Shown: positions 4,098-32,971 of the stretch, in pieces
Numbering within the stretch: position 1 is the stretch's first letter
How the letters are laid out: each line of letters opens with the position of its first letter
Assembly: GCA_944389195.1 (NCBI GenBank)
Contig: CALXLM010000044.1
Span: forward strand, 1 to 32,971
Origin: an uncultured Opitutales bacterium
GTDB lineage: Bacteria; Verrucomicrobiota; Verrucomicrobiia; Opitutales; Intestinicryptomonadaceae
Direction of reading: 5' to 3'
DNA length: 32,971 nt
Position numbers and translations under genes: made by a program
The notes under the pieces: model-generated
What the model saw: the letters and a program-made list of their open reading frames with translations, nothing else
The model's database searches: none
Told to the model about the DNA's origin: nothing

Positions 4098-5096
4098 ATG
4101 GAGATGGCGCGGGTTGGCAATGCCGGCAATGCGGCGTATTCGTCTGGAACATCGCTTTATAACGGATATGGAAGCGTCGCATACGAATATAGCATAAGCA
4201 AAACCGAAGTCACGGTATCGCAGTATTTAAATTTTGTAAATTCCTTCGGTTCCGGCGTTGGCGTAAATTCGGAAAATATGAACGTTATGCTCAATACTTC
4301 CATTGGAGAGGTATGTATTTATGAGGGGCTTTCGCACCAGCCGAACGTCATTACATACGACAGCGGTTCCGGAAAATTTGAGGCTATAAACAATCAGGGA
4401 GAAGCTCCCATTACTTATGTCAGCGCAATCGCCGGCGCGCTTTATTCCAATTGGTTGTCAAACGGGGCAAGCGCTGGATCAGACTGCCTCTCGGGTGTTT
4501 ACGACTTTAAAACTTACGGCTTTAGCGTGGACGTGTTTAAAAACGCCAAAAGGAGCGAAGGCGGATACATGCTTTGCAGCATAGATGAATGGGTGAAGGC
4601 GGGATATTATTCTCCGGAATTGAACGGCGGCGAAGGCGGATACTATCAGTTTGCCACCCAAAGCGATACGGCGCCGACGGCTTCGCTTCCCACTTCCGAG
4701 GCAAACACCGCAAATTTAGCGTCTAAAAATTACGACGAGACAGCGCGCAGTCGATTTACCGATGTAGGCTCCTATCCGAATTCGTCCAGCTATTACGGAA
4801 CATTCGACCAGGAGGGCAACGCTTCGGAGTGGACCGACACGCTTTATCCCGAAGGAGGAATTCTGTCCATGCCGGAAGGTGTTGTAATAAGCGGGACATA
4901 CGCCACGACTTCCGCAAGCGAAAATACGGGGTTAGACGTCACGCTATTTTTAAACGGGAACGATTGCGACTCGTCGGATGTGTGGACCGGACTTCGAATG
5001 GTTTACATTGAAGCCGTTCCCGAACCTTCGGCCTATGCGGCGATATTCGCGGTTTTGGCATTCGCCTTCGCGGCGCGCCGCAGGCGCGGAAGATAG
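4098..5096 (+). CDS. FGE/SUMF1-like PEP-CTERM sorting-domain protein (separated from its signal peptide by a stop)
   Basis: The body of an exported protein with a formylglycine-generating-enzyme-like (sulfatase-modifying factor, C-type-lectin-like) fold and a PEP-CTERM anchor. The opening MARVGNAGNAA..GYGSVAYEYSISKTEVTVSQY is the characteristic start of the SUMF-like PEP-CTERM family. LCSIDEWVKAGYY corresponds to the usual LPTEAEWEYAA block, and GTFDQEGNASEWTD to the GNVWEW block. The C terminus has VPEPSAYA, a hydrophobic helix and RRRRGR, the exosortase sorting signal. The 332-residue frame starts at ATG 4098 without a signal peptide; the real N terminus is at 4011, upstream of an in-frame TGA. 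As it stands the gene is probably inactive, or the stop is a sequencing error or is read through. No catalytic Cys arrangement of true FGE is evident, so a structural or binding role is more likely. Confidence 0.82.
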   Translation: MEMARVGNAGNAAYSSGTSLYNGYGSVAYEYSISKTEVTVSQYLNFVNSFGSGVGVNSENMNVMLNTSIGEVCIYEGLSHQPNVITYDSGSGKFEAINNQGEAPITYVSAIAGALYSNWLSNGASAGSDCLSGVYDFKTYGFSVDVFKNAKRSEGGYMLCSIDEWVKAGYYSPELNGGEGGYYQFATQSDTAPTASLPTSEANTANLASKNYDETARSRFTDVGSYPNSSSYYGTFDQEGNASEWTDTLYPEGGILSMPEGVVISGTYATTSASENTGLDVTLFLNGNDCDSSDVWTGLRMVYIEAVPEPSAYAAIFAVLAFAFAARRRRGR

Positions 5097-30299: not shown

Positions 30300-30328
30300 T
30301 TGACAAATTTCGGGCACGCGAAAATTTT
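30300..30328 (+). promoter_or_regulatory. Candidate promoter of the cobalamin riboswitch operon
   Basis: A consensus TTGACA -35 box (30300-30305) is followed after 17-19 bp by an AATTTTAA -10-like segment (30323-30330). Transcription would begin around 30336, about 40 nt before the first conserved riboswitch helix. Confidence 0.5.
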
Positions 30329-30378
30329 AAGACCAGTTCTTTTTAATACCCGGCATTTGGTTTTAAATGCCGAGAAGG

Positions 30379-30543
30379 TCCGTACACAAACGGAAGTCCT
30401 GTTAAAATCAGGCGCGGTCTCGCCGCTGTAATTTCCGACGGACGCACAAAAGCCACTGTTGAGCGGTTGCTCGATGGGAAGGCGTGCGTTTATGGGTTCT
30501 GTTTTCGAATCCGGGGATAAGCCAGAAGACGTGTGTATGCGGA
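30379..30543 (+). ncRNA. Cobalamin (B12) riboswitch
   Basis: An adenosyl- or other cobamide-sensing leader RNA. The conserved blocks appear in order: CCTGTTAAAATCAGG with GCGCGGTCTCGCCGCTGTAA (30398-30431), AGCCACTG (30451-30458), ATGGGAAGGC (30474-30483) and the B12 box AAGCCAGAAGACGTGTGT (30519-30536). Closing helix P1 is formed by TCCG and TACACA (30379-30388) with TGTGTA and CGGA (30532-30543), with a 2-nt bulge. It precedes a PEP-CTERM gene and a TonB-dependent receptor, so rising cobamide should switch them off. The B12 box has GTGTG where CTGCC is usual, compensated in P1. Confidence 0.93.
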
Positions 30544-30647
30544 TGTCCTTTAATTCTCGAGTAAAGAAGGCAGGGCAATGTGCGGATTCCATACTCTTGG
30601 GCGTTTTTTGCGCCTGTGGGCGTTATGGATCGCGCGGCGGTTTTCTT

Positions 30648-30678
30648 GGCGCGTTTTCTTCGTTTTCGCGCCTTTTTT
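30648..30678 (+). terminator. Candidate riboswitch expression-platform terminator
   Basis: GGCGCG (30648-30653) and CGCGCC (30667-30672) can pair around a 13-nt T-rich loop and are followed by T6 (30673-30678). This lies in the 205-nt stretch between the riboswitch and the first start codon. GCGCGG at 30632-30637 could compete for the 3' arm as an antiterminator. The stretch has no other supportable gene. Confidence 0.5.
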
Positions 30679-30748
30679 CCGTTTTTGCGAGACGCTGTGT
30701 TTTGTTTTCTTTATTCGGGTTCCAATATTCAACCCAAAGTGAAACAAA

Positions 30749-31591
30749 ATGAAATCGTTAAATAAAGCAGTCTCAGTTTCGTCGGCCGCAATACTTGCGT
30801 GGCTGGCGGCGGTAAATACGGCAAATGCCGGAGTCATCACATTTGAAGATGTCTCTTTTGAAGGCGAATGGATGGCCACTCCAACAGCCGACGGCGTCAA
30901 TGATTGGTACGCCGGCGACGGCAGCATAGGAAATTTAAGCTTTACAAGTTCCTACGGCGGGTACGCATGGGAGGGCTTTAAGGCGTCGAAGGCTACGGAT
31001 GCTTCCGATGTCACTTATCAGAACGACTGTTGCTCCAATCCGGGCGGCGGCGCAGGCGGCAGCCAAAAATATGCGGTGTTTTACGGAATGTCCAATACGT
31101 CATACGGGACATCTGCCGCTACGATAATGTTTTCCGAGGCCGTCGAGCTTGTAAGCATGGACGTATGCAATACAGCTTATGTGGAGTATTCGATTGAAAA
31201 CGGCGACGGTTATGCGAGCGCGTTTGCCGACGTTGAAGGCGAGGTTTATTTTAACCTGCTTTTGCGTGGCGTGGACATTGACGGGAACTATTCCGAATAT
31301 TTAAAGATTTCGCTCGCATCAAAGGGTTCCGACGGCGTCGTGGTGTCGCTTTCGGATTGGTCGAATTTTTCGCTTGAATCGCTGAACATGGAAGGTGGGC
31401 TTTACGGCCTTGAATTCAGCATAGAGGGAAGTCCGAACATAGCCGGAAGTTTGGGATATTTGAATACGCCCACTTATGCGGCTTTCGACAACATATCGTA
31501 CAATCTCGCCGCCGTTCCCGAACCTGCGGAGTGGGCTTTTGCTTTCGGGGTGACTGCGCTGGCGCTGGCGCTTTACGGAAGGAAAAGGTAG
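30749..31591 (+). CDS. PEP-CTERM sorting-domain protein, DUF4465-like, under cobalamin riboswitch control
   Basis: An exported 280-residue protein with a signal peptide (residues 1-27, cut after TANA) and a PEP-CTERM tail: VPEPAEWAF at about 255-263, a hydrophobic helix and GRKR. It should be processed by an exosortase and held at the cell surface. The body resembles DUF4465: it begins ITFEDVSF, has YGGYAWEGFKASKATDAS, a Gly-rich segment with KYAVFYG, SMDVCNTAYVEYSIENGDGYA, and ends NTPTYAAFDNISYN. A Cys-Cys pair (about residues 91-92) and one more Cys are present. Being the first gene after a B12 riboswitch and 64 bp before a TonB-dependent receptor gene, it is a candidate surface cobamide-binding protein. 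Position and sorting signals are seen; the ligand is inference. Confidence 0.78.
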   Translation: MKSLNKAVSVSSAAILAWLAAVNTANAGVITFEDVSFEGEWMATPTADGVNDWYAGDGSIGNLSFTSSYGGYAWEGFKASKATDASDVTYQNDCCSNPGGGAGGSQKYAVFYGMSNTSYGTSAATIMFSEAVELVSMDVCNTAYVEYSIENGDGYASAFADVEGEVYFNLLLRGVDIDGNYSEYLKISLASKGSDGVVVSLSDWSNFSLESLNMEGGLYGLEFSIEGSPNIAGSLGYLNTPTYAAFDNISYNLAAVPEPAEWAFAFGVTALALALYGRKR

Positions 31592-31610
31592 TTTGCAATC
31601 CTAAGGCGGT

Positions 31611-31644
31611 CGCCGGGCGGCCATTGCGCCGCTCGGCGGCTTTT
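31611..31644 (+). terminator. Very stable intercistronic hairpin with short T tract
   Basis: CGCCGGGCGGC (31611-31621) pairs with GCCGCTCGGCG (31628-31638), 11 bp with one G-U, around a 6-nt loop. GCTTTT follows. It sits between the PEP-CTERM and receptor genes, ending 12 bp before the latter's ATG, and could act as a partial terminator or as an RNA-stability element that makes the first gene more abundant. Confidence 0.6.
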
Positions 31645-31655
31645 GTGGAAAAGCC

Positions 31656-32971
31656 ATGTTGAAATTTAAGAAAAAGGCGGTCCTGTTTGCCGCATTGGCG
31701 TCGGTTGCGGCTTTGTGCGCCGGAAATACCGAATCCGGAGGCGAAACGGAACCCGAGCCCGGCGGGGCCGACGGCGTGTTGGAGCCCATGGAGGTCACGG
31801 CATACCGGTTCGGCATGGATCCTCTTTCTGTTCCCGTCAATTCGCATGTTATCACCCGCGGAGAAATAGAAGACAGCGCATCTACGACAGTCCCGGAGGT
31901 GCTGGCAAAGAAGGGGAACGTGCGCTTCATGTCTTATACGGGAGGATATTCCGACGGCAATCTCGCAATGCGCGGTTTCGGAGAACAATCGCAGACAAGG
32001 ATACTCGTGCTTGTGGACGGCGTGCGGTACAATCCTTCGGATATGGCCTCGATAAACTGGTCGTCCATTCCGCTTTCGACGGTTGACAGCATAGAAATTT
32101 TAAGGGGAGCCCAGAGCGCCATGTACGGCGGCCATGCGGAGGCGGGCGTAATAAAAATATCCACAATACGCCCGTCCGACGGGTATGACGCCAACGTCAA
32201 TGCGCTGTACGGCTCTTACGGGCTTTACGACGTTTCCGCGTGGGCTTCCGGAAGGGAGGGAGACGCCTTTTTTTCCGCGAATGTTTCGACATACAACTAC
32301 GACGGCTATCGGGAATTCTCCGAAGCGTGGTCGAACGGCGCGGGGCTTATGTGCGGATACGATATCTCCGAAGGGTCCTCGATAATTTTAAGGGGCGATT
32401 ACAGCGAATCATACATACAGTATCCTGAAGCGCTTTCGTGGGCGGATTTCCAGGACGATCCGCGCAAAGCCTCCGGATACAGCATGGCGTTTCACGACAA
32501 GACGGGATTATATACGGCCAATCTCAAATCGGAAACCGACAGCGCAAAAGGAGACGCAACTTTCGGCCTGCGCTTTCGGGACAGGAGAATTTACGACTAC
32601 GGCAAGGAAATGCCGAAATATAACAACCAGTGGACGTATTCGTTCTCGCCGCGCGTCGATATAACGGCGATAGAGGATACAAACATTTTTGCCGGGGTTG
32701 ACGCAAACTATTCGAATATAGACTATTGGCAGCAGTCGAAAAACATAATTTACGATGTTTTGTACTCCGACAGAACTTCAAAGGTTGACAGGTTGGATTT
32801 CGGCGCCTACGCCGGCGCATCGCACGATCTGACGGAGAAATGGACCGTCAGCGGCGGGGCGCGCGCCGACGCCGCATACACTTCGGCCGCTTGGACTTCT
32901 TATGTCTGGGGGCGCTACGACACGCGCCCGGAAATTGCCGGCGATTACGACGGCTCAAAATGGGATACCGG
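31656..32971 (+). CDS. TonB-dependent outer-membrane receptor, BtuB-like (cobamide uptake), 3' truncated by window edge
   Basis: An outer-membrane beta-barrel receptor that imports a substrate with TonB energy; its place behind a B12 riboswitch makes cobalamin or related cobamides the likely substrate. The ATG at 31656 opens a signal peptide (MLKFKKKAVLFAALASVAALCAG). An acidic stretch and a TonB-box-like EPMEVTA follow near residues 47-53. The plug domain shows VPEVLAKKGNVRF, LAMRGFGEQSQTRILVLVDGVRYN and IEILRGAQSAMYGGHAEAGVIKI, all canonical. The remaining visible part, to about residue 438, is alternating barrel strands rich in Tyr and Ser. The frame is open at the window end, so roughly a third of a normal receptor is missing. 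No BtuF/C/D genes are visible. Confidence 0.9.
   Translation, partial: MLKFKKKAVLFAALASVAALCAGNTESGGETEPEPGGADGVLEPMEVTAYRFGMDPLSVPVNSHVITRGEIEDSASTTVPEVLAKKGNVRFMSYTGGYSDGNLAMRGFGEQSQTRILVLVDGVRYNPSDMASINWSSIPLSTVDSIEILRGAQSAMYGGHAEAGVIKISTIRPSDGYDANVNALYGSYGLYDVSAWASGREGDAFFSANVSTYNYDGYREFSEAWSNGAGLMCGYDISEGSSIILRGDYSESYIQYPEALSWADFQDDPRKASGYSMAFHDKTGLYTANLKSETDSAKGDATFGLRFRDRRIYDYGKEMPKYNNQWTYSFSPRVDITAIEDTNIFAGVDANYSNIDYWQQSKNIIYDVLYSDRTSKVDRLDFGAYAGASHDLTEKWTVSGGARADAAYTSAAWTSYVWGRYDTRPEIAGDYDGSKWDT

What the first reader, a model, noticed from the sequence alone, without database searches (positions are those of the whole stretch)
30300..32971. B12-riboswitch operon pairing a PEP-CTERM surface protein with a BtuB-like receptor
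The sequence shows a full cobalamin riboswitch, then a signal-peptide/PEP-CTERM protein, then a TonB-dependent receptor. In Bacteroidetes, cobamide receptors work with surface lipoproteins (BtuG, BtuH) that capture B12. Here the accessory protein would instead carry an exosortase sorting signal and a DUF4465-like body. This suggests a PVC-lineage cobamide-capture module with a different anchoring route. The ligand and partnership are inferred from regulation and gene order.
Basis: partly seen in the sequence, partly recalled or inferred. Interest (0 to 1): 0.8.

Follow-up and report, generated by a model that had tools for sequence, protein, structure and literature searches.

The report
Vitamin B12 capture operon, exosortase-tailed
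A gut Opitutales bacterium (Verrucomicrobiota) that apparently cannot make the vitamin B12 ring carries a B12-switched operon with an outer-membrane receptor and two B12-grabbing surface proteins; the protein families are known from gut Bacteroides, but here they carry a different surface-sorting tail, and the same set turns up in many other bacterial phyla.

Summary
The window holds a cobalamin riboswitch (RF00174, 58 bits), a signal-peptide/DUF4465/PEP-CTERM-like protein and a TonB-dependent receptor cut by the contig end. The ligand inference is largely answered in print: DUF4465 proteins (BtuJ) bind B12, including one from Coraliomargarita (PDB 9HMU). The window protein keeps the motif and fold (Z 25.6, 2.1 Å). 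Its predicted congener structure best matches the B12-binding domain of BtuH2/BtuG1 (Z 12.3/11.6). Riboswitch–BtuJ–receptor–BtuH recurs in all eight DUF4465-bearing congeners (third gene incomplete in one). It also occurs in Betaproteobacteria, Desulfobacterota, Gammaproteobacteria and Bacteroidota with lineage-specific tails, so it is not a PVC invention; Planctomycetes fuse the two capture domains. The genome has MetH and methylmalonyl-CoA mutase but no CbiC: a probable B12 scavenger. PEP-CTERM-type DUF4465 proteins were already tallied (88 of 824). New here are the complete module, the BtuH assignment and the cross-phylum pairing. Binding and surface attachment are untested.

The parts
30340..30552 (+). 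cobalamin riboswitch aptamer (RF00174)
   Evidence: cmscan 58.1 bits, E 4.2e-12, full-length; same family upstream of the orthologous operon in 7 of 7 other DUF4465-bearing congeners
30648..30678 (+). terminator-like hairpin (GGCGCG/CGCGCC then T6) between aptamer and first gene; possible expression platform, weak
   Evidence: fold and scan; 10 of 200 shuffles of this leader also give one, and only one of seven congeners shows a comparable hairpin, so unproven
30749..31591 (+). BtuJ-type DUF4465 cobamide-binding protein, 280 aa, secreted, PEP-CTERM-like tail
   Evidence: PF14717 99.3 bits; AlphaFold model pLDDT 85, best PDB match 9HMU (DUF4465 with B12) Z 25.6, 2.1 A, 202 residues
30749..30829 (+). 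Sec signal peptide, residues 1-27 (..NTANA/G), no lipobox
   Evidence: sequence; helix 3-21 in model
31178..31180 (+). Tyr144 in the DE-loop helix (N-T-A-Y), by position the likely counterpart of BtuJ1 Tyr146
   Evidence: Tyr in 32 of 38 homologues, Asn141 in 38 of 38; role from PMC13398666
31463..31477 (+). HI-loop motif NTPTY (residues 239-243), the family's B12-binding loop
   Evidence: Tyr243 in 37 of 38 homologues, Pro241 in 38 of 38; PMC13398666, PMC12751083
31514..31588 (+). PEP-CTERM-like tail: VPEP, hydrophobic helix 259-279, GRKR
   Evidence: sequence and model; NCBIfam PEP-CTERM models only weakly; exosortases elsewhere in the genome
31656..32971 (+). N-terminal 438 aa of a TonB-dependent receptor (681 aa when joined to contig C36, outside the window); the next gene, also on C36, is the 302-aa BtuH-like PEP-CTERM-like protein (C36:13760-14665, minus strand)
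   Evidence: Plug 78.4 bits; exact 127-bp contig overlap; join 681 aa and tree; third gene

Best explanation
This is a cobamide-scavenging operon. When intracellular cobalamin is low, the riboswitch lets through a transcript for three proteins: a BtuJ-type DUF4465 protein, a TonB-dependent receptor and a BtuH-domain protein. The two small proteins are exported by Sec, bear PEP-CTERM-type tails that an exosortase is expected to cut, and end up on or outside the outer membrane. There each binds cobamides tightly and presents them to the receptor, which imports them with TonB energy; the BtuC-like permease and its ATPase elsewhere in the genome then carry them inside to MetH and methylmalonyl-CoA mutase. 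Shown here: gene content, riboswitch, folds, conserved binding motif, recurrence and metabolic context. Inferred from named relatives: cobamide binding, hand-off to the receptor and repression by B12. Inferred from the tail alone: exosortase processing and final location.
For: Riboswitch. DUF4465 at 99 bits; fold matches are BtuJ1, BtuJ2 and Coraliomargarita D5EK51 at Z 22-26 against 10 for the first unrelated fold. B12 binding shown for eight DUF4465 proteins (PMC13398666). NTPxY loop kept. Third protein: best structural matches BtuH2 7BIZ (Z 12.3) and the BtuG1 H-domain (Z 11.6), next 9.4; profile hit on the same BtuG1 stretch, E 0.003. Recurrence: 8 of 8 DUF4465-bearing congeners with the riboswitch; in 80 loci anchored on the third protein, DUF4465 in 45, receptor in 45, riboswitch motif in 34, nine of nine checked confirmed by Rfam. 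Fusions of the two capture domains. Genome: MetH, methylmalonyl-CoA mutase, BtuC-like permease, no CbiC, only two TonB receptors. Exosortases.
Against: No binding, transport or localisation measurement exists for these proteins. The PEP-CTERM tail of the window protein is below model cut-offs. The receptor is far below the BtuB equivalog cut-off and E. coli BtuB falls outside its clade. No single expression platform is conserved between aptamer and start codon. One congener (G102) has lost the key HI-loop tyrosine, so binding may not be universal. The structure that matches BtuH is that of a congener's third protein (L099), not of the window genome's own copy.
Confidence: 0.88

Rival explanations
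1. The two capture proteins are released, not anchored: exosortase cuts the tail and the proteins leave the cell as soluble cobamide scavengers that reload the receptor, like the PEP-CTERM zinc exoprotein ZepA.
For: ZepA, a PEP-CTERM protein with TonB receptors among its gene neighbours and homologues in the PVC group, is a true exoprotein (PMC10957091). PEP-CTERM fate after cleavage is little studied. B. theta BtuJ proteins act from released vesicles (PMC12751083).
Against: Bacteroides counterparts are membrane lipoproteins; some Akkermansia PEP-CTERM proteins were found in the outer-membrane fraction (PMC4960237).
Confidence: 0.35
2. The receptor takes up another ligand (iron or haem complexes) and only happens to be under B12 control.
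For: The congener receptor L048 scores higher on siderophore and haem receptor models than on the B12 model.
Against: It sits between two B12-binding-type genes behind a cobalamin riboswitch in every DUF4465-bearing congener examined; the plug-containing part is closest to the B12 receptor model; E. coli siderophore receptors lie outside its clade.
Confidence: 0.05
3. The DUF4465 protein is a structural or adhesive PEP-CTERM surface protein with no cobamide ligand.
For: Most PEP-CTERM proteins have unknown, matrix-like roles (general knowledge). Jelly-roll folds also bind sugars (lower rows).
Against: Conserved binding loop, riboswitch control, family-wide B12 binding in published tests (PMC13398666).
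Confidence: 0.04

Closest known systems
Bacteroides thetaiotaomicron B12 loci 1 and 2 (btuJ, btuH, btuG, btuB; PMC12751083, PMC10404256, PMC8941943)
   Same: Cobalamin-riboswitch operon, TonB receptor, BtuJ (DUF4465) and BtuH-domain capture proteins
   Different: Bacteroides proteins are lipoproteins and have BtuG as receptor lid; here tails are PEP-CTERM-like and BtuG (DUF5074) is absent from all 14 congeners searched
D5EK51 of Coraliomargarita akajimensis (PDB 9HMU, PMC13398666)
   Same: DUF4465 of a verrucomicrobial relative, B12-bound crystal structure, Z 25.6 to the window model
   Different: 24-26% identity; the paper does not discuss exosortase tails or a BtuH-type partner
ZepA, cyanobacterial PEP-CTERM zinc exoprotein (PMC10957091)
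   Same: Exosortase-type nutrient scavenger with TonB receptors in its gene neighbourhood
   Different: Zinc ligand, zinc-responsive control, unrelated body

Membership tests
Cobalamin riboswitch RF00174 | covariance score above gathering threshold over the whole aptamer | tested here: met
   58.1 against 31.5 bits, positions 1-189 of 189
DUF4465 / BtuJ B12-binding proteins | PF14717 above cut-off | tested here: met
   99.3 against 25 bits
DUF4465 / BtuJ B12-binding proteins | augmented jelly roll with NTPxY HI loop and DE-helix tyrosine | tested here: met
   Z 25.6 to 9HMU; Y243 and Y144 present
DUF4465 / BtuJ B12-binding proteins | binds cobalamin | not testable with these tools
   needs purified protein
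PEP-CTERM / exosortase substrates | PF07589 or TIGR02595 above cut-off | tested here: not met
   no hit for the window protein; motif VPEP-helix-GRKR is present by inspection, so it is described as PEP-CTERM-like
PEP-CTERM / exosortase substrates | exosortase in the genome | tested here: met
   PF09721 142.9 and 68 bits
BtuB equivalog (TIGR01779) | score above the equivalog cut-off | tested here: not met
   92.6 (partial) and, for the full-length congener, 108 against 599.7 bits; E. coli BtuB outside the clade; called a BtuB-like receptor by context only
BtuH B12-binding domain (third gene, outside the window) | fold of the 7BIZ C-terminal domain | tested here: met
   congener's protein L099: Z 12.3 over 173 residues to 7BIZ, 11.6 to the BtuG1 H-domain, next 9.4
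BtuH B12-binding domain (third gene, outside the window) | significant sequence similarity | tested here: inconclusive
   profile hit to BtuG1 H-domain at E 0.003 with A3 and 0.11 with A5
BtuG lid (DUF5074) | beta-propeller PF16819 | tested here: not met
   none in 14 congeners

The most novel reading that the evidence does not exclude
The Pfam-dark 'DFAVFEN' family found here is a second, phylum-crossing cobamide-capture family (the BtuH domain outside gut Bacteroidetes). With DUF4465 it forms a standing pair, sometimes fused, that replaces the BtuG lid in loading the receptor and is sorted by whichever surface pathway the host lineage owns.
Probability: 0.4. Interest if true: 0.7.

Novelty: new variant of a known kind. 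Interest (0 to 1): 0.5.

Why it matters
B12 scavenging by surface proteins has been worked out almost only in gut Bacteroides. This locus and its relatives suggest that the same two capture folds are used in many phyla, here without BtuG and with swapped sorting tails. That gives a likely ligand and a measurable phenotype to exosortase-type proteins, whose functions are mostly unknown, and gives a likely function to a protein family without a Pfam entry.

Tried and rejected
PVC-specific module: rejected, the set is in Betaproteobacteria, Desulfobacterota, Gammaproteobacteria and Bacteroidota. BtuG-like identity for the third gene: rejected, no DUF5074 propeller in the genus and the fold matches BtuH. 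A conserved intrinsic terminator as expression platform: not found across congeners. Pfam or PHROGs identity for the third protein: none; NCBIfam gives only a weak match to the LIC_13355 lipoprotein family. Literature searches for PEP-CTERM with B12, and for BtuH outside gut Bacteroidetes, gave nothing beyond three Firmicutes.

Full report
What is there. The window is the whole of contig C44 of a 2.37 Mb, 96% complete genome. It lies in a genus of Opitutales: the congener G051 has a 157,426-base contig, the same length as record L099, 'uncultured Opitutales bacterium'. At 30340-30552 lies a full-length cobalamin riboswitch, the only one in the genome. A 280-aa ORF follows (30749-31591) with a signal peptide, a DUF4465 domain at 99 bits and a VPEP-helix-GRKR tail. 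At 31656 a TonB-dependent receptor starts and runs off the contig.

Completing the operon. The last 127 bases of the window are identical to the first 127 of the reverse complement of contig C36. The joined receptor has 681 aa, and a 302-aa protein with its own PEP-CTERM-like tail follows directly. The same order (DUF4465, receptor, third protein) is seen in all seven other DUF4465-bearing congeners (the third gene is cut by the contig end in L051). A riboswitch precedes it in all seven: six, the seventh (L050) at 46.1 bits. One of the nine congeners sampled, G067, lacks the DUF4465 gene.

First gene. DUF4465 is no longer of unknown function: BtuJ1 and BtuJ2 of B. theta bind B12 very tightly (PMC12751083), and six further distant members, among them Coraliomargarita D5EK51 (PDB 9HMU), bind it too (PMC13398666). 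The window protein's model (pLDDT 85) matches 9HMU at Z 25.6 (2.1 Å over 202 residues), BtuJ1 at 24.3 and BtuJ2 at 22.5; the first unrelated fold scores 10.1. It keeps the HI-loop motif NTPTY and a tyrosine in the DE helix.

Third gene. It has no Pfam family but carries an invariant DFAVFEN motif in the 16 sequences first aligned. A profile finds the H-domain of BtuG1 at E 0.003. A predicted structure of the congener protein L099 (pLDDT 81) has BtuH2 (7BIZ, Z 12.3) and the BtuG1 H-domain (8BLW, Z 11.6) as its two best matches, ahead of other folds at 9.4. In B. theta that domain binds B12 (PMC8941943). I therefore call it a BtuH-like capture protein. Sequence similarity alone would not carry this: the broader profile gives only E 0.11.

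Receptor. It scores far below the BtuB equivalog cut-off, and E. coli BtuB, FepA, CirA, FhuA, FecA and PqqU all fall outside the clade of 48 receptors that holds it (98/93 support). Nearly all of those receptors lie next to the module, but they were chosen that way, so the tree argues against a siderophore-receptor identity rather than proving a cobamide one.

Recurrence. In 28 loci of the order picked by DUF4465 alone, a third-protein homologue lies within 5 kb in 18, a receptor in 18, both in 15. By my rough estimate chance would give fewer than one. Riboswitches in that set are almost confined to this genus. In 80 named loci picked by the third protein, DUF4465 is near in 45, a receptor in 45, a riboswitch motif upstream in 34, all four in 25. 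The motif scan gave 2 hits in 622 kb of shuffled sequence, and all nine loci rechecked by Rfam were confirmed. This set favours close relatives of the query. Betaproteobacteria carry PEP-CTERM tails, gammaproteobacteria VPLPA-type tails, Desulfobacterota a GCFI-type tail and Bacteroidota T9SS tails. In five planctomycete ORFs the BtuH-like domain is fused to two or three DUF4465 domains, and in one betaproteobacterium to one.

Physiology. The genome encodes methionine synthase MetH, both methylmalonyl-CoA mutase subunits, and a BtuC-like permease next to an ATPase, but no CbiC and no BtuG-type protein. It has two TonB plug proteins in all. A B12-dependent scavenger is the simplest reading; absence of one biosynthesis marker in a 96% complete genome is not proof.

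Known and new. Known: B12 binding by DUF4465, its linkage to TonB receptors (40-55% of the large cluster), and that 88 of 824 members carry IPR013424, which I read from memory as the PEP-CTERM entry. Not found in the literature searched: the BtuH domain in these phyla (mBio 2022 reports Bacteroidetes and three Firmicutes), its standing pairing with DUF4465 outside Bacteroides, and the matching swap of tails. The FEBS paper hints that DUF4465 genes sit near other unnamed families resembling B. theta accessory proteins.

Limits. No binding, localisation or transport data; the tail of the window protein is below PEP-CTERM model cut-offs; release instead of anchoring is quite possible (ZepA).

Noticed in passing
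window 4098-5093 (+): Another PEP-CTERM protein, with an FGE-sulfatase (SUMF1-like) domain; its tail is above the TIGR02595 cut-off.
   Followed up: no
L049 3324-10057 (genome G102): Two cobalamin riboswitches: the second lies upstream of a second TonB receptor; the DUF4465 protein there has lost the HI-loop tyrosine (TPSAM instead of TPxY).
   Followed up: partly
L183 3540-5531 (-) (G000 contig C13): The genome's only other TonB receptor, 45% identical to the second receptor of L049 that has its own B12 riboswitch; no riboswitch was found for it here.
   Followed up: partly
L132, L158, L167, L170, L174: Planctomycete proteins of 1073-2003 aa (some cut by the contig end) that fuse one BtuH-like domain to two or three DUF4465 domains.
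   Followed up: partly
L041, L055, L058, L062: Opitutales DUF4465 proteins without PEP-CTERM that seem to end in aromatic, W/Y-rich tails, possibly another surface-sorting signal.
   Followed up: no
L120, L122, L124, L130, L134, L138: In Desulfobacterota-type genomes both capture proteins end in a GCFI/CFI-type tail; no NCBIfam tail model hit in the pair checked (L120).
   Followed up: partly
L095 11991-13253 (-): A gene of about 420 aa downstream of the third operon gene; a similar-looking one follows in congener L045. Not tested for operon membership.
   Followed up: no
L048 11313-12221, L155 9001-10035: Weak but repeated match of the BtuH-like family to the LIC_13355 lipoprotein family of NCBIfam (E down to 5e-6), perhaps a B12-capture lipoprotein family too.
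   Followed up: no
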